NCBI GenBank assembly: GCA_008933615.1
Contig: WBUR01000032.1
Span: forward strand, 1-52,022
DNA from: a bacterium
GTDB taxonomy: Bacteria > CLD3 > SB21
Length of the DNA: 52,022 nt
Direction of reading: 5' to 3'
The notes under the pieces: model-generated
Seen by the model: the letters and a program-made list of their open reading frames with translations, nothing else
Databases searched by the model: none
What the model was told of the DNA's origin: nothing
Made by a program: the position numbers and the translations under genes
Shown here: piece by piece, positions 1-52,022 of the stretch
How the letters are laid out: each line of letters begins with the position of its first letter
How positions within the stretch are numbered: position 1 is the first letter of the stretch

Positions 1-1941
1 GGATATAACGCCGATTATGTCAAACGTGATTTTCAAGGGTATCGTGTGTACCGAAGTCTCACCGGGTTGGATGGGAGTTTTCAGCTGCGGGCGCAGTACG
101 ATGCGGTAGATACGCTTGGACTTCTGTCGTATCGATTTCTAAATAATAATTCAAATCTTGAAATTGCCGAGTTGAATTTCGGCACCAATTCCGGATTGCG
201 ATACAGCTTCATCGATTCCAATCTGACCAACGGACAGAATTATTTTTATTCCGTCACAGCCTACGACGCACAGCCCTATATCGCCGGGCCGGACAGTATG
301 CTTTTTGACGGAAAATTAATTCTGAAACCCTCAGGCATCCCCGTGTCCCTCGAATCATCCATCTTGTCAAATACCGTGTCCGCCGTGCCGCAGAAACTAA
401 GTTCGTCATTCCGCTACGATGCGATGGCCGATTCTTCTATGGCGCATCACGCCGCCGGTTTGTCCAGCGGTTACTTACAGCTTGAAGTGGTCGATCCCGA
501 TGTGGTCGTTGACGGATCCTATTCCGTAACGTTTCATTACTTACCGGATTCCGCAGATCATAAAAGGATTGTGTATAATGGAACCACACAGGCCGGTCAG
601 ATGGTGTTTGAAGTGCGCAGAGATGGAAATGTTTTAGCCCTTTCTTCAAAAGTAGACGATCCGCAAACCTGGATCGACGGGGGCAACGGAATTCTTGACA
701 TGGACGCCGATAGAAATCTGATCAACGGCGATTCGATCTTTGATGACCGATTCTTCAGCACATCCTATACCGTCACTTCGGCGAGCGCTCAATTTTTCAA
801 CACATCTATAATCGGTTCCCCCACAGAGATGGAACTGGTTGGAGTTTGTGAAGGAATATTTATAAAAGCGTATGGGCCTCCTTCGGAAGTATTAGCTTGG
901 AGTTATACGAGTAGCACGGGAACGGGTTCGCGATGGATGACCGGCGTTAATCTCGGATTCGAACAATTTTCCGGCGGGTTGACCGTCGCTCCAAGTCCAT
1001 CCGATACGATATTGAACGTCGATATTGTATTCAGTAATAACCCGAGCGGTTGGTCTACGGTGTACGGACATACGGGCGCTTTGGGTATTGTCAATGAGAC
1101 CTTCCTTGCACCCTTCAAAGCCTACGAAGTGGACCCCAGAGATGGCGACGCAACGCCGCGTGAAGTGAATGTGGTTGTACGTGATGCAAATGATCTGAAC
1201 GGCTGGTATCTCGATAATACGTTAGGCGGTGACGGCACCGGCCCTCAAACGCGCGTTTACACCACTATCACAAACAGGCCTTACGATAGCGGAACTCAGG
1301 ACGCCGTGATCTGGGGACACAACCTTATTGAAATTCCGGCCATGTTCTTGTTTGACATGGCACCGATGTTTTATGATGGGTACACCTGGAACGAATTAGC
1401 AAAGCATGCCACACTTCCCGGAAGCGACGGAGGATCAACCATCACATTAGCTGAGCAGGACACGATCTACCGTAATATACCCGATGACGGTACGTTCCAT
1501 ATTCTTGCCAATCATGTCATCACAACCAACGACGTCTTCACCTACTCCACCACAGCTCGCACTGCGGCATCAAAGTCCGATGTTAAACGTGCACTGAAAG
1601 ATATCAAAGTCGTACCCAATCCGTTTTACAAATATTCATCATTCGAAACGTCGTTCGATAAACTGATCAAGTTCACCAATCTCCCGTCATCGTGCACGAT
1701 CAAGATATTCACCGTTGCGGGTGATCTGGTTCGCACATTGAATCATAATTCAGCTTCGGACAATGACCGTGTGAATAACCGCCCGTATGATGAAAGTTAT
1801 TCACCCTCAAGCGATGCAACCTCGATCGAACGATGGGATTTGAAAACCGCTAACGGGCGTTACGTTGCCAGCGGCATGTATATCGCGCTCGTGGAATCTT
1901 CGGTAGGAAAGAAGTTGGTTAAGTTTGCGGTGATACAATGA
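1..1941 (+). CDS. Secreted Fn3/FlgD-like C-terminal domain protein, paralogue 1 (5' truncated by window edge)
   Basis: The reading frame is open from base 1, so the gene starts upstream of the window; the first in-frame GTG (46) lies inside a conserved domain and is not the start. Residues 1-115 form the end of a fibronectin-III-like domain (YRVYRSLTGL, then NGQNYFYSVTAYDAQPY). Residues 130-525 are a copy-specific segment absent from the two downstream paralogues. Residues 533-646 are the shared C-terminal domain (VVPNPFYKYSS, FTVAGDLVRTLNH, NGRYVASGMYIALVES), a FlgD-Ig-like fold used as a T9SS-type sorting tail. It is probably exported and surface-attached. Its substrate is unknown. Bases 1663-1817 are identical to 4004-4158 of the next gene, which implies recent duplication or gene conversion. 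The family assignment of the C-terminal domain is secure; the function is not known. Confidence 0.8.
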   Translation, partial: GYNADYVKRDFQGYRVYRSLTGLDGSFQLRAQYDAVDTLGLLSYRFLNNNSNLEIAELNFGTNSGLRYSFIDSNLTNGQNYFYSVTAYDAQPYIAGPDSMLFDGKLILKPSGIPVSLESSILSNTVSAVPQKLSSSFRYDAMADSSMAHHAAGLSSGYLQLEVVDPDVVVDGSYSVTFHYLPDSADHKRIVYNGTTQAGQMVFEVRRDGNVLALSSKVDDPQTWIDGGNGILDMDADRNLINGDSIFDDRFFSTSYTVTSASAQFFNTSIIGSPTEMELVGVCEGIFIKAYGPPSEVLAWSYTSSTGTGSRWMTGVNLGFEQFSGGLTVAPSPSDTILNVDIVFSNNPSGWSTVYGHTGALGIVNETFLAPFKAYEVDPRDGDATPREVNVVVRDANDLNGWYLDNTLGGDGTGPQTRVYTTITNRPYDSGTQDAVIWGHNLIEIPAMFLFDMAPMFYDGYTWNELAKHATLPGSDGGSTITLAEQDTIYRNIPDDGTFHILANHVITTNDVFTYSTTARTAASKSDVKRALKDIKVVPNPFYKYSSFETSFDKLIKFTNLPSSCTIKIFTVAGDLVRTLNHNSASDNDRVNNRPYDESYSPSSDATSIERWDLKTANGRYVASGMYIALVESSVGKKLVKFAVIQ

Positions 1942-1948
1942 AGACAAC

Positions 1949-2010
1949 TAACCGCAAAGAGCGCAGAGAACGCAAAGAAACCTTTGCGCGCTTTGCGTCC
2001 TTTGCGGTTA
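1949..2010. repeat. Intergenic inverted repeat, CGCAAAG type
   Basis: Two 29-nt arms (1949-1977 and 1982-2010) pair with five mismatches around a 4-nt loop. The arms begin TAACCGCAAAG and end CTTTGCGGTTA. It fills almost the whole gap between paralogues 1 and 2. A degenerate relative lies at 7564-7662, and a CACAGAG-type relative at 26450-26557. It looks like a dispersed palindromic repeat rather than a terminator, because no T-run follows either arm. Confidence 0.8.
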
Positions 2011-2029
2011 AAATATATGCAGATGAGAT

Positions 2030-4282
2030 ATGAAAAAAGTTATAATCACAATTTTAATCCTCTTAACATGGATCAGCCTTTTCTCGACTGGTTTCTCCCG
2101 CACAGACGGAAAGAATAAGATCTCTCTGCGAAAACCTGACATTATCGATCTCGTCTTCGTCAACTACAACAACTGGTCGTACGTCATGCGCAATAACGGC
2201 AGTTATATGAATGACGGACTTGACAACAACCGTGGCGGCGGAGAATTTCCAAGAGGCAGCGGGAAAACCATTGTCCGTGCAGGAGGATTCTACATTGGAA
2301 CCATCAAGAACGGCATTCCGGTTGTAAGCGAGGTCGAATACAACTCTGAATTTCAGCCCGGAAGAATTACCAATTCCCACGTTTCATTCGATCAGCTAAC
2401 TGCGGAAGACCCGTCATTGCCGTCCCAAAAGGTTTATCTGATCGATCGTGAACACCGTACAGACTGGCCAGAGGACGCATTACACGATGCATTCGGTCGT
2501 CCGGCTCTGATTGCCGATGCGCAGACCTGGGCGGTGTTCAATGATCTTGACACCTCTCTCAATCAAGAATCTCTGAAGGAAAGCCTCGATCCCGGATTGG
2601 GAATACAGGTCACTTTGGAATCGTATGCTTTCAATGGCCCCAAGATCGGCGATGTTGTATTCATGCGGTATATTCTCACCAACAAAACCAATTCAGACTA
2701 CACACAATCCTATTTTGGAGTATGGAGCGATCCGGATGTAGGGAATGACATCAAAAACGACCTTGTCGGAACGGACACAACTCGCGGTATGGAATATGTG
2801 TATAATAATACTAACGAAGGACCCGGTAATGATTTTTCTGTTGGATTTGATATTCTGCAGGGGCCTGTTGTCTATACCGCAGAGATACCTCCCCGAGACG
2901 CTTTAAGGTATCAAAACAACAAGAAAATTATCAGATATAACCCTAAAAAGAATACTTTTGTCAGTGAAGCTATTGCAGATGATCACATTGCCTTGGGGGC
3001 GGTATCTTCAGTGGCACATCTGTTTGGTTCAATTCCGACCAATGATGTCGGACGATATAATCTTATGCGTGGTGCTGATCAAACCATTGGAATCATGAAA
3101 TGGGGTCCATGCGGGTTTGAGGATTATTTCATGTTTCGCGGTAACCCTCTCACAGAACAAGGATCGTGTGATGTTGCTGGTGATAACAATCCAATCATTA
3201 TTGATTTTTATGGATGGAGAACTGATGCTCGAACCTTGCTGAATACCGGCCCTTTCACTATTAAAGCCGGTGAGTCGCAGGAAATATGGGTTGGCGTGAT
3301 CGGAGCTAAGGGAGTTGATCGTTTGGATGCCGTGGGTAATCTTTGGGAAACCGATGATCTCGCCCAGTCGTTCTTCGATGCGGGATTTCCCGCTCCTTCG
3401 CCTCCGGAAGTCCCGAACCTCACGGTCACCCCGCTCGACGGAAAGACCGTTCTCACCTGGCAGAATAATGCGGAAGTATCGGAAGACCTGGCGGGTGAAT
3501 TATTAGGTATTCGTGTCGACAGCGGATTTTCTGCTGATTATGTAAAATCGGATTTCCAGGGCTACCGTGTGTATCGAAGTTTGACCGGGTTACAAGACAG
3601 TTACGAACTCCTCGCTCAATACGACAAGATCGATTCTCTGGGAACCATCTCCTATCGGTTCCTGAATGCCAATAATAATATCGAGATCTCAGACATAAAC
3701 TTAGGTTCCAATACCGGCCTAAGCTACTCATACACCGATTCCAATCTGACGAACGGACAGAATTACTTTTACTCTGTTACTGCGTACGACGCCCAGCCCT
3801 ATATCGCCGGGCCCGACAGCATACTCTTCGACGGAAAATATATTCTGAAACCTGACGGGCTTCCAGTTTCATTGGAGTCCTCTGTTTTATCCAATGCGGT
3901 TTCCTTAGTACCTCTTAAATCCATCGCATCATCCGTGAAGAACATCAAAGTCGTCCCCAACCCCTTTTACAAGTATTCGTCGTTCGAAACGTCATTGGAT
4001 AAGCTGATCAAGTTCACCAATCTCCCGTCATCGTGCACGATCAAGATATTCACCGTTGCGGGTGATCTGGTTCGCACATTGAATCATAATTCAGCTTCGG
4101 ACAATGACCGTGTGAATAACCGCCCGTATGATGAAAGTTATTCACCCTCAAGCGATGCGACCTCCATCGAACGATGGGACTTGAAAACGGCCAACGGCCG
4201 CTACGTCGCCAGCGGCATGTATATCGCGCTCGTGGAATCGGCGGAAGGAAAACGGTTAATAAAATTTGCGATCATACAATAA
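2030..4282 (+). CDS. Secreted Fn3/FlgD-like C-terminal domain protein, paralogue 2
   Basis: This 750-residue protein has a classical signal peptide (Lys-Lys, then a hydrophobic core to about residue 22). A family N-terminal domain follows (residues 30-205, with VNYNNWSYVMRNNG). The central region at 207-450 differs from the paralogues. A fibronectin-III-like domain spans about 455-605, and a FlgD-Ig-like C-terminal domain about 636-750 (VVPNPFYKYSS to IKFAIIQ). The C-terminus is the kind used as a T9SS sorting signal, so cell-surface export is inferred. The ATG at 2030 is the only start that keeps the signal peptide; its ribosome site is weak. The gene is followed after 15 nt by a propeller lipoprotein, suggesting co-transcription. 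No enzymatic motif was recognised. Confidence 0.82.
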   Translation: MKKVIITILILLTWISLFSTGFSRTDGKNKISLRKPDIIDLVFVNYNNWSYVMRNNGSYMNDGLDNNRGGGEFPRGSGKTIVRAGGFYIGTIKNGIPVVSEVEYNSEFQPGRITNSHVSFDQLTAEDPSLPSQKVYLIDREHRTDWPEDALHDAFGRPALIADAQTWAVFNDLDTSLNQESLKESLDPGLGIQVTLESYAFNGPKIGDVVFMRYILTNKTNSDYTQSYFGVWSDPDVGNDIKNDLVGTDTTRGMEYVYNNTNEGPGNDFSVGFDILQGPVVYTAEIPPRDALRYQNNKKIIRYNPKKNTFVSEAIADDHIALGAVSSVAHLFGSIPTNDVGRYNLMRGADQTIGIMKWGPCGFEDYFMFRGNPLTEQGSCDVAGDNNPIIIDFYGWRTDARTLLNTGPFTIKAGESQEIWVGVIGAKGVDRLDAVGNLWETDDLAQSFFDAGFPAPSPPEVPNLTVTPLDGKTVLTWQNNAEVSEDLAGELLGIRVDSGFSADYVKSDFQGYRVYRSLTGLQDSYELLAQYDKIDSLGTISYRFLNANNNIEISDINLGSNTGLSYSYTDSNLTNGQNYFYSVTAYDAQPYIAGPDSILFDGKYILKPDGLPVSLESSVLSNAVSLVPLKSIASSVKNIKVVPNPFYKYSSFETSLDKLIKFTNLPSSCTIKIFTVAGDLVRTLNHNSASDNDRVNNRPYDESYSPSSDATSIERWDLKTANGRYVASGMYIALVESAEGKRLIKFAIIQ

Positions 4283-4297
4283 ACTAATCGGTGCGTC

Positions 4298-5233
4298 ATG
4301 AAAAACACTACCTACATTATTTTTTCTATAATGATTTTTGCTGCGTGCGACTCCAAAGAAAAAGAGCTACCCGTAAAATGGAATGCGTATACATTGAATA
4401 ATTCTGCACTGATCAATAATTACGTCCTATGCGTTACGGTTGATTCTGATGATCACGTTTGGACTGGAAATTTTTACGGTGATGTGACGGAATTTGACGG
4501 CAAACTGTGGACCCATCACACCACAACTAATCCTGCACCTTTTAACAGAACCGTCTATACCATTGCCGTTGACCACTTCAATACAATCTGGGCGGCAACC
4601 GATTCGGGATTGTTTCATTTTGAAAATGGATCTCTTCCTTCTATTTATTCCGGGTCACGCATACAAGATATTGCCGTTGCTTCGGATAACAGCATATGGA
4701 CATGTACTCCCTATGTTAATAAGCTTGATCCCGAATACAATTGGACACCTTTTAATCTTTACGGCGACCACATTGCCATTGCACGTAACTCCTACGTGTG
4801 GCTGTGCAGCTATGGTCAGATTGTAGAGTTACGCGGACAGAATTCTGTGATCTATCGAATAGCAGACTTTGGCGTCCCCAATCAATATCTGCTGGACATA
4901 GCCGTCGATGATAATAACGTCGTTTGGATTGGAACGAACAAGTCCGGCTTAGTTCGATTCAACGGCACCGGCTGGGCCGTTTATGATACCGCAAATTCAG
5001 GACTCCCAAGCAACCAGATCCAGACGATCGCTTTTGATAAGGAAGATCATATGTGGATCGGCACCGATCTGGGCGTTGCATACTATGACAACACTCAATG
5101 GGTTGTTTACAATACAGAGAATTCAGGGCTTTCATCCAATAATATTACCGGTATCGCATTTGATAAAAAGAATAACGTCTGGATCGCCACTTTCGGCGGC
5201 GGTTTAAACGTATTCAATCCAAACGGTCTCTGA
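4298..5233 (+). CDS. Reg_prop-type propeller lipoprotein
   Basis: This 311-aa protein begins with a lipoprotein signal whose lipobox is FAAC (Cys about 17), so it should be anchored to a membrane facing the periplasm or surface. The rest is a run of about seven blades of the two-component-regulator-propeller type, each carrying a variant of D-x-x-x-x-V/I-W-I/V-G/A-T-x-x-G-L followed by F/Y-x-G/N (for example WIGTNKSGLVRFNG and WIGTDLGVAYYDN). Such propellers are normally the sensor half of hybrid histidine kinases; here there is no kinase or transmembrane part. It sits 15 nt after paralogue 2 and 14 nt before paralogue 3, so the three probably form one transcript. Binding of a glycan or of the neighbouring proteins is a guess. 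Confidence 0.8.
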   Translation: MKNTTYIIFSIMIFAACDSKEKELPVKWNAYTLNNSALINNYVLCVTVDSDDHVWTGNFYGDVTEFDGKLWTHHTTTNPAPFNRTVYTIAVDHFNTIWAATDSGLFHFENGSLPSIYSGSRIQDIAVASDNSIWTCTPYVNKLDPEYNWTPFNLYGDHIAIARNSYVWLCSYGQIVELRGQNSVIYRIADFGVPNQYLLDIAVDDNNVVWIGTNKSGLVRFNGTGWAVYDTANSGLPSNQIQTIAFDKEDHMWIGTDLGVAYYDNTQWVVYNTENSGLSSNNITGIAFDKKNNVWIATFGGGLNVFNPNGL

Positions 5234-5247
5234 CAGGATGACTTAAG

Positions 5248-7557
5248 ATGCGGCTCAATACAATAAAGTTCGTATCTTTGCTTCTTATGCTGACTCTAGC
5301 CTGCGTCGCTGGATTTGGTATCGCACGAAGCGGAGAAAAAGGAAAGAATAAGATCTCTCTGCGAAAACCTGACATTATCGATCTCGTCTTCGTCAACTAC
5401 AACAACTGGTCGTACGTCATGCGCAATAACGGCAGTTATATGAATGACGGACTTGACAACAACCGTGGCGGCGGAGAATTTCCAAGAGGCAGCGGAGGAA
5501 CTCTCATCCATGCAGGTGGATTTTATATTGGAACCATCAAGAACGGCATTCCGGTTGTAAGCGAGGTCGAATACAACTCTGAATTTCAGCCGGGAAGAAT
5601 TACCAATTCCCATGTTTCATTCGATCAGCTAACTGCGGAAGACCCGTCATTGCCGTCCCAAAAGGTTTATCTGATCGATCGTGAACACCATACAGACTGG
5701 CCAGAGGACGCATTACACGATGCCTTCGGTCGTCCGGCTCTGATTGCCGATGCGCAGACCTGGGCGGTGTTCAATGATCTTGACACCTCTCTCAATCAAG
5801 AATCTCTGCAGGAAAGCCCCGATCCCGGATTGGGAATACAGGTCACTTTGGAATCGTATGCTTTCAATGGCCCCAAGATCGGCGATACGGTATATCTTCG
5901 ATTCATTTTTGAAAACAAGACCAATTCCGATTATCCGCAAACATATTTCGGTGCGTGGTCAGATGCTGATGTAGGTTACTCCGACAATGATATCATCGGA
6001 ACAGATACGACGCGCAACATGGAATATGTTTATAATTTGTACGGTGAGTATCTGTATAGATTTGAAGGTAAGCGTCTTATCGAAACACCCAACGATAAGG
6101 CTGTCGGATTTGATATTATGCAAGGTCCTATTGTTGAAGCAGCAGAGATTCCAACTCGTGATTTTCTTCGTAATCAGAACAACAAAACGATTCGCATTTA
6201 CGACCCCGAACAAAATCGGTTCGCCGCAGAATTGCTTACGGGCGATCGGATAGCCTTAGGCGCCGTGACAACAACGGCGTTCACAGAGCAGTATGGATAC
6301 TCGCCCACGTTTGACTATATGGACCCGACTGATGACAGAGAACGCTACGATTTAATTCGCGGCGTTCATACGCCGACCGGCACTCTGAAATCCGGTTGCG
6401 GTCTCGAGGATTATTTTGTGTTTCGTGGCAGACCATTCAACTTAGGAGATTGTGTCCAAATTCCAGATGGACCCCCAATTCCAGGCGAAGGTTCAGCGAA
6501 CTGGCGTATCCTGATCGGCACCGGCCCTTTTACGATCAAAGCAGGATGTTCACAGGAAATATGGGTTGGCATTATTGGCGCTGTGGGACCCAGCCGCCTC
6601 AATGCCGTGGCCAATCTCTTTGCCACCGATGATATTGCTCAGGCTTTTTTTGACGCAGGCTTCCCCGCTCCGGCGCCTCCGGAAATTCCGAATCTTTCGG
6701 TTACTGCTTTAGATGGACGCGTCACACTCACCTGGCAGAATAATGCGGAAGTATCGGATGACCTTGCAGGTGAGTTACTCGGTATCACCGTTGCCAATGG
6801 ATATAACGCGGATTATGTCAAACGTGATTTTCAAGGGTATCGTGTGTATCGAAGCCTCACCGGGTTGGAAGGAAGTTTTTCTTTACTTGCCCAATATGAT
6901 AAAGTCGATTCGCTCGGCATCATTACCAACCGCTTCATCAATACGAATAATCATTTGGATATCGAGGATGTTAACTTAGGTTCCAATTCAGGCCTTGTCT
7001 ATCATTATGTCGATTCCAATCTGACCAACGGACAGAATTATTTTTATTCCGTCACAGCCTACGACGCACAGCCCTATATCGCCGGGCCGGACAGTATGCT
7101 TTTTGATGGAATATATATTCCCAAGCCCGCAGGCTTACCTGTGTCATTGGAATCGTCCATTTTAGCCAATGCCGTCTCCGTCGTGCCTTTCAAGACGGTT
7201 GCTTCTACTGTGAAGAACATCAAAGTTGTGCCCAACCCCTTTTACAAGTATTCGTCGTACGAAACGTCGCTCGATAAACTGATCAAGTTCACCAATCTCC
7301 CATCATCCTGCACGATCAAGATATTTACCGTTGCGGGTGATCTGGTTCGCACATTGAATCATAATTCTTCGTCGAATAACGATCGTGTGAATAACCGTCC
7401 GTATGATGAGACTTACTCGCCCGCAGACGACGCGACTTCCATCGAACGGTGGGACTTAAAAACGTCAAACGGGCGGTACGTTGCCAGCGGCATGTACATC
7501 GCACTCGTGGAATCGGCGGAAGGAAAACGGTTAGTTAAATTTGCGATCATACAATGA
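5248..7557 (+). CDS. Secreted Fn3/FlgD-like C-terminal domain protein, paralogue 3
   Basis: This 769-residue protein has the same layout as paralogue 2: signal peptide (to about residue 25), family N-terminal domain, variable centre, fibronectin-III-like domain (from about 475) and FlgD-Ig-like sorting-type C-terminus (from about 654). Bases 5341-5886 align with 2108-2653 of paralogue 2 without any indel; 5341-5495 is identical to 2108-2262. Beyond 5886 the genes diverge sharply until the Fn3 region. Bases 7012-7106 are identical to 214-308 of paralogue 1. The signal peptide sequence itself differs from paralogue 2. Export through a T9SS is inferred from the tail. No catalytic motif is visible. 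Confidence 0.82.
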   Translation: MRLNTIKFVSLLLMLTLACVAGFGIARSGEKGKNKISLRKPDIIDLVFVNYNNWSYVMRNNGSYMNDGLDNNRGGGEFPRGSGGTLIHAGGFYIGTIKNGIPVVSEVEYNSEFQPGRITNSHVSFDQLTAEDPSLPSQKVYLIDREHHTDWPEDALHDAFGRPALIADAQTWAVFNDLDTSLNQESLQESPDPGLGIQVTLESYAFNGPKIGDTVYLRFIFENKTNSDYPQTYFGAWSDADVGYSDNDIIGTDTTRNMEYVYNLYGEYLYRFEGKRLIETPNDKAVGFDIMQGPIVEAAEIPTRDFLRNQNNKTIRIYDPEQNRFAAELLTGDRIALGAVTTTAFTEQYGYSPTFDYMDPTDDRERYDLIRGVHTPTGTLKSGCGLEDYFVFRGRPFNLGDCVQIPDGPPIPGEGSANWRILIGTGPFTIKAGCSQEIWVGIIGAVGPSRLNAVANLFATDDIAQAFFDAGFPAPAPPEIPNLSVTALDGRVTLTWQNNAEVSDDLAGELLGITVANGYNADYVKRDFQGYRVYRSLTGLEGSFSLLAQYDKVDSLGIITNRFINTNNHLDIEDVNLGSNSGLVYHYVDSNLTNGQNYFYSVTAYDAQPYIAGPDSMLFDGIYIPKPAGLPVSLESSILANAVSVVPFKTVASTVKNIKVVPNPFYKYSSYETSLDKLIKFTNLPSSCTIKIFTVAGDLVRTLNHNSSSNNDRVNNRPYDETYSPADDATSIERWDLKTSNGRYVASGMYIALVESAEGKRLVKFAIIQ

Positions 7558-7563
7558 AAACTA

Positions 7564-7662
7564 TTAACCGCCTGCCTGCGCGAAGCGCTTCGGCGAAGGC
7601 AGGCAAAGGACGCAGAGTATTCACTGAACTACTTGCCATGATCTTTGCGTCCTCTGCAGTAA
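7564..7662. repeat. CGCAAAG-type inverted repeat interrupted by a 33-bp palindrome
   Basis: The outer repeat (left arm TTAACCGC plus AAAGGACGCAGAG, right arm ATCTTTGCGTCCTCTGCAGT) belongs to the same class as 1949-2010. Its left arm is split by a near-perfect palindrome at 7571-7603 with 7-bp ends (CCTGCCT/AGGCAGG) and a 10-bp core, GAAGCGCTTC. Removing the palindrome restores a continuous arm, so one palindromic element appears to have inserted into another. Confidence 0.7.
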
Positions 7663-51801: not shown

Positions 51802-52022
51802 TTAGAATTTTAGGCCGACAGTAAAGCGATGGGTTTTACCGAGATCGCCCATGTCCATAAATCCATAATCAACGGCTGCGCCGAATTTATCCGTAAACTT
51901 GTAGTCCACACCGGCACCAAGCGTGAGACCGCTCATACCGCTTCCGGTATAATCACGATCCGATTTCAATGCCGAGGTATAACCGCCTCGTGCGAAGAAC
52001 ATGTTTTTGAATCCATATTCAA
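51802..52022 (-). CDS. PorV/PorQ-like outer-membrane barrel, C-terminal end (truncated by window edge)
   Basis: The frame is open to the right edge, so only the last 73 codons are visible; the in-frame ATG at 52002 is internal. The sequence EYGFKNMFFARGGY, then LTLGAGVDYKF, AAVDYGFMDMGDLG and the ending THRFTVGLKF has alternating amphipathic strands and a C-terminal Phe, as in outer-membrane barrels. It closely resembles the end of PorV/PorQ family proteins, which belong to T9SS. This fits the T9SS cargo proteins in the left third. Confidence 0.72.
   Translation of the reverse strand, partial: EYGFKNMFFARGGYTSALKSDRDYTGSGMSGLTLGAGVDYKFTDKFGAAVDYGFMDMGDLGKTHRFTVGLKF

What the first reader, a model, noticed from the sequence alone, without database searches (positions are those of the whole stretch)
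1..7557. Tandem surface-protein array with mosaic identity
Three paralogues show patches identical at DNA level separated by diverged patches: 2108-2262 equals 5341-5495, 1663-1817 equals 4004-4158, and 214-308 equals 7012-7106. Bases 2108-2653 and 5341-5886 align without indels, after which the centres are unrelated at DNA level. Different pairs share different patches, which duplication alone does not explain. Gene conversion that keeps the flanks alike while central cassettes vary would give a diversity-generating array for T9SS-type surface proteins.
Basis: partly seen in the sequence, partly recalled or inferred. Interest (0 to 1): 0.7.

Follow-up and report, generated by a model that had tools for sequence, protein, structure and literature searches.

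The report
Surface-gene array homogenised by gene conversion
Four neighbouring genes for large secreted proteins keep copying the same shared parts onto one another while their distinctive parts stay in place, which is a clear but familiar kind of evolution (gene conversion) rather than a machine for shuffling surface antigens.

Summary
The window is a whole contig (C32). Its left edge cuts a gene whose other half most likely ends contig C5, so the array is four genes, A–B–C–D, with A on C5, B split, and C and D in the window. All the quoted exact repeats are present.

Gene conversion is strongly supported. In a same-genus genome, the central modules of A and B group as orthologues, but the shared middle block groups by genome: 62 sites against 0, with the orthologue tree rejected at AU p about 1e-40. 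The tracts are silent-site tracts. A–B dS is 0.12 and C–D dS is 0.09, below the species baseline of 0.2–0.5, while adjacent blocks are near saturation. Similar tracts occur in relatives.

The "diversity-generating cassette array" is not supported. All genes are intact, no silent donor copies were seen, and the modules keep their identity and apparently their position across species. Conversion homogenises the scaffold; it does not swap cassettes. Conversion and replacement do raise divergence between species at this locus.

Export by T9SS is likely but the tail match is sub-threshold. This is a new member of a known kind: concerted evolution of tandem surface-protein genes, as with gingipain/HagA adhesin domains or PE/PPE genes.

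The parts
1..1941 (+). Gene B, 3' part (646 aa): shared middle block, long central module, C-terminal tail. The 5' half is most likely L007:10218-11613 (end of contig C5), about 113 bp missing between them
   Evidence: open at 5' end; colinear with gene A across the contig break
2030..4282 (+). Gene C (750 aa), short form without the central module
4298..5233 (+). Unrelated beta-propeller (Reg_prop) gene lying between C and D
   Evidence: Pfam PF07494, E 6e-24
5248..7557 (+). Gene D (769 aa), short form
1..405 (+). Shared middle block of B, nearly identical to A; also patches identical to D (13-50, 212-308). It has its own point differences from A, so it is a distinct copy
   Evidence: A-B dS 0.12; exact runs
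2108..2653 (+). N-terminal conversion tract of C shared with D
   Evidence: 96% identity, dS 0.09
5341..5886 (+). N-terminal conversion tract of D shared with C
1663..1817 (+). C-terminal tail tract of B identical to C
   Evidence: 155-bp exact run; permutation p 0.0001
4004..4158 (+). C-terminal tail tract of C identical to B
7010..7106 (+). Middle-block tract of D identical to B 212-308
   Evidence: 97-bp exact run; permutation p 0.0001 to 0.0002
410..1570 (+). Central module of B: diverged from A's module, orthologous to B2 of the sister genome (approximate bounds)
   Evidence: alignment columns about 675-1090

Best explanation
A tandem array of four genes (A-B-C-D) for large exported surface or extracellular proteins. 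Homologous recombination between the direct copies repeatedly copies short tracts (about 0.1-0.5 kb) without reciprocal exchange. The tracts fall in the shared scaffold: an N-terminal block, a middle block and the C-terminal, probably T9SS-sorting, tail. The central segments keep their separate identities and apparently their positions, so the outcome is concerted evolution of the scaffold with fixed, specialised cassettes. Shown: the repeats, the mosaic, the silent-site evidence, the discordant trees between two species, and similar tracts in three other genomes. Inferred: RecA-type recombination, T9SS export and cell-surface location, selection for a common export or assembly scaffold, and the joining of contigs C5 and C32 inside gene B.
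For: Quartet of A,B (this genome) with A2,B2 (same genus): 62 within-genome versus 0 orthologue sites in codons 538-655, but 12 versus 188 in codons 675-1070; longest within-genome run 64 against a shuffle maximum of 14. AU test rejects the orthologue tree for the middle block (dL 157, p about 1e-40) and rejects the paralogue tree for the modules (p 0.0017, 5e-5, 9e-35). dS in the middle block: A-B 0.12 and A2-B2 0.32, but A-A2 0.96 and B-B2 1.91; dS in module 1: A-B 2.54, A-A2 0.55. The A-B and C-D tracts have dS (0.12, 0.09) below the species baseline of 0.18-0.48 in downstream genes. The A-B middle tract and C-D N tract have diverged sequence on both sides, which one crossover cannot give. 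Beyond the genus, module-A groups with G006 gene a and module-B with G003, while middle-block and tail trees group G006 copies by genome. Low-dS patches in paralogue pairs of G006, G004 and G001. All copies are open.
Against: All genomes compared are fragmented (mostly metagenome-assembled), one per species, so no conversion event was watched within a population. Quartet signals in the N block and tail are weaker (AU 0.34 and 0.06 for the orthologue tree). The C5-C32 joint is inferred. A permutation of sites assumes sites are exchangeable.
Confidence: 0.85

Rival explanations
1. A diversity-generating (antigenic-variation-like) array in which central cassettes are swapped between copies while conversion keeps the flanks alike.
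For: Mosaic tracts; the locus is much more divergent than its surroundings: G001 has 92-96% identical flanks but a wholly different array; dS between orthologous blocks (about 1-1.9) exceeds the species baseline (0.2-0.5).
Against: Modules are stable orthologues across species and even genera; no silent or truncated donor cassettes were seen; four open genes rather than one expression site; tracts lie in the most conserved parts.
Confidence: 0.1
2. Unequal crossing-over and successive partial duplications, without conversion, made hybrid genes.
For: Copies are direct repeats; copy number and the presence of the module differ between genomes.
Against: Interior tracts flanked on both sides by saturated divergence (A-B middle block; C-D N block) need two exchanges, and the paralogue grouping arose separately in two species. 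It may contribute to copy-number change.
Confidence: 0.1
3. Strong purifying selection or codon constraint on conserved blocks only looks like copying.
For: The blocks are conserved in protein sequence.
Against: The same block has dS 0.96-1.9 between orthologues but 0.12-0.32 between paralogues within a genome, so synonymous sites are not constrained.
Confidence: 0.02
4. Assembly artefact: mixed or collapsed repeat copies in a short-read metagenome assembly.
For: Contigs of several genomes end in these genes; the A/B tract sits at a contig break; G001's copy contains N gaps.
Against: C-D and B-C tracts lie inside one contig with unique sequence between; the A and B copies differ at scattered bases; the sister genome, assembled separately, shows its own tract.
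Confidence: 0.05

Closest known systems
Porphyromonas gingivalis rgpA/kgp/hagA adhesin domains (PMC5266723)
   Same: T9SS-exported surface proteins with identical DNA repeats within and between genes, contig breaks in the repeats, and modular or allelic mosaics
   Different: There, domain order and variants rearrange between strains, and the genes encode proteinases/adhesins. Here the modules stay in place and only scaffold blocks are shared; no gingipain-type domain was found by Pfam
Gene conversion among PE/PPE/ESX paralogues of Mycobacterium tuberculosis (PMC13061034)
   Same: Recurrent gene conversion between paralogues at diversity hotspots
   Different: There it was seen in 151 long-read genomes within a species; here only between species, in an unrelated protein family
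Antigenic-variation cassette systems with silent donors (pilE/pilS, vlsE; from general knowledge)
   Same: Conversion tracts in surface genes
   Different: No expression site plus silent cassettes here; no sign of programmed switching

Membership tests
Concerted evolution by gene conversion in a tandem family | Paralogues within a genome more alike than orthologues, in tracts, at silent sites | tested here: met
Concerted evolution by gene conversion in a tandem family | Interior tracts bounded by diverged sequence on both sides | tested here: met
   sliding dS
Concerted evolution by gene conversion in a tandem family | Independent recurrence in other lineages | tested here: met
   A2-B2; weaker patches in G006, G004 and G001
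Antigenic-variation cassette system | Silent or incomplete donor copies | tested here: not met
   A, C and D are complete open genes; B is open on both sides of the break. The assembly has gaps, so an unassembled donor is not fully excluded
Antigenic-variation cassette system | Variable cassettes move between positions | tested here: not met
   module orthology kept, between species only
Antigenic-variation cassette system | Switching within a population | not testable with these tools
   one genome per species
T9SS cargo | Recognised C-terminal sorting domain | tested here: inconclusive
   TIGR04183 only 17 of 23 bits for D; PorZ/PorU tail matches E 6e-7 to 6e-4 but below cut-off; PorZ structure 5m11 E 0.14
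T9SS cargo | T9SS machinery in the genome | tested here: met
   SprA_N above cut-off; a PorU-like protein with 245 bits, below the 420-bit cut-off
Known protein family for A-D | Match in Pfam or NCBIfam over the body of the protein | tested here: not met
   no Pfam hit at E 1 for A and D, nor at E 0.001 for B 3' part, C and D; NCBIfam matches over the tail only, apart from one chance-level hit

The most novel reading that the evidence does not exclude
A family of export-linked surface proteins in which recombination is confined to the export/assembly scaffold across several genera, keeping a fixed, ordered set of specialised modules on a common interchangeable frame, so that the array behaves as one co-evolving multi-subunit surface structure.
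Probability: 0.15. Interest if true: 0.5.

Novelty: new member of a known kind. Interest (0 to 1): 0.38.

Why it matters
It gives a clean natural example of what gene conversion does in a tandem surface-protein array: it homogenises the common frame and leaves the specialised parts as true orthologues. It warns against reading mosaic identity as antigenic variation, and it helps explain why assemblies of this bacterial family break in these genes. The protein family has no Pfam model.

Tried and rejected
AlphaFold models of D and of the B 3' part were unusable (mean pLDDT 28 and 31), so no fold search was run and the domain nature of the middle block stays open; 'Fn3-like' was only a working label in the scripts. 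Purifying selection as the cause was rejected on silent sites. The VPS10 gene on L042 was first used as a divergence baseline (dS 0.79) and then rejected, because a closer copy on L063 (dS 0.28) shows L042 holds a paralogue or a second allele. Literature searches found no paper on this array.

Full report
Check of the observation. The window is a complete contig of 52,022 bases. It begins inside a gene. The end of contig C5 (L007) carries a complete paralogue, A (1156 aa), and the 5' half of another gene, and stops where it is identical to A for 127 bp. The window starts about 113 bp further on, measured along A, again nearly identical to A. The simplest reading is one gene B split by the assembler, and an array A-B-C-D with a beta-propeller gene between C and D. 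The joint itself is inferred. In the sister genome A2 is likewise followed by a gene start resembling B, which supports it.

Architecture. A and B carry a central module of about 400 aa before the tail; C and D lack it. All four have a signal-like N-terminus (seen directly in the translations), a conserved N block, a diverged centre, a conserved middle block and a conserved tail. No Pfam family matches. The tail has sub-threshold similarity to the C-termini of PorZ and PorU (the PorZ structure at E 0.14). The genome has SprA and a PorU-like gene, and two downstream genes have proper T9SS tails.

Conversion test. In G002, of the same genus, the syntenic locus has A2 and B2. If the tracts were old or only conserved, A would group with A2 everywhere. 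Instead the middle block gives 62 sites grouping A with B and A2 with B2, and none the other way, while the modules give 12 against 188. AU tests reject opposite trees in the two regions. The blocks differ in synonymous divergence: middle block A-B 0.12, A2-B2 0.32, A-A2 0.96, B-B2 1.91; module 1 A-B 2.54, A-A2 0.55; N block C-D 0.09 with a near-saturated centre. The baseline between the two genomes, from downstream genes with a near copy, is dS 0.18-0.48, so the A-B and C-D tracts are probably younger than the species split. Both species homogenised the same block separately. The N block and tail show the same tendency but more weakly (AU 0.34 and 0.06 for the orthologue tree).

Wider family. 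Module trees put G006 gene a with A, and G003 with B, across genera (support 0.995 and 0.907), while middle-block and tail trees group the G006 copies by genome (support 0.88 and 0.84). Low-dS patches also occur in paralogue pairs of G006, G004 and G001. In G006, gene a also lies beside a CHAT gene, as A does here. Module identity therefore seems tied to position, the opposite of cassette shuffling.

Divergence of the locus. Flanks on both sides are about 92-96% identical to G001, but from about C5:107,500 to about window 13,000 that genome has different array genes, and different versions of genes 8075, 8505 and 12693. Against G002 the array and CHAT gene are mostly 70-85% identical, with flanks mostly around 83-94%. 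The locus therefore diverges fast between species, through import from paralogues or outside alleles (inferred). In that limited sense it generates diversity. Within-population switching was not testable.

Mechanism. Most likely, homologous recombination between direct repeats converts short tracts. Tracts survive where a shared sequence is tolerated or favoured (export tail, N block, middle block) and not in specialised modules. The recombination enzyme, the selection and the surface location are inferred.

Caveats. The genomes compared are fragmented, and G002 at least is a metagenome-assembled genome. G002's 8505 gene occurs in two versions (L042 and L063), so copy number downstream of B2 is uncertain and orthologues of C and D there may be missing. 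G001's contig through its array gene has two N gaps.

Noticed in passing
window 51805-52022 (-): The window's right end cuts a PorV/PorQ-family gene (last 72 aa, 78% identical to G001). The rest is not in the assembly, although the genome is rated 99% complete.
   Followed up: partly
L044 (G001:C199:9001-22866): In G001 the left flank of the array leads through one array gene and PorV to the genes at the window's right end (51547 back to 45981): a possible inversion of about 45 kb between array copies, or a false scaffold join, since the array gene there holds two N gaps.
   Followed up: partly
L053, L054, L055, L049: In other genera the long form sits between a gene that is (or resembles) a TonB-dependent receptor and a PorV/PorQ-family gene, a conserved trio.
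   Followed up: no
L042:4011-6887 and L063: The sister genome has two versions of the VPS10-like gene 8505 (79% and 95% aa identity to the window), as if that gene too were duplicated or strain-mixed.
   Followed up: no
window 1949-2010: An imperfect palindrome between B and C whose half occurs on other contigs (C45, C18): a dispersed hairpin element.
   Followed up: no
L007:3359-6472 (-): A TPR-CHAT protein gene is head-to-head with A; a homologue lies beside an array gene in G002, G003 and G006 too.
   Followed up: partly
window 7531-7617 and L007:10057-10143: 87 identical bases spanning the stop codons of D and A and about 60 bases beyond, so one shared tract runs into non-coding DNA.
   Followed up: no
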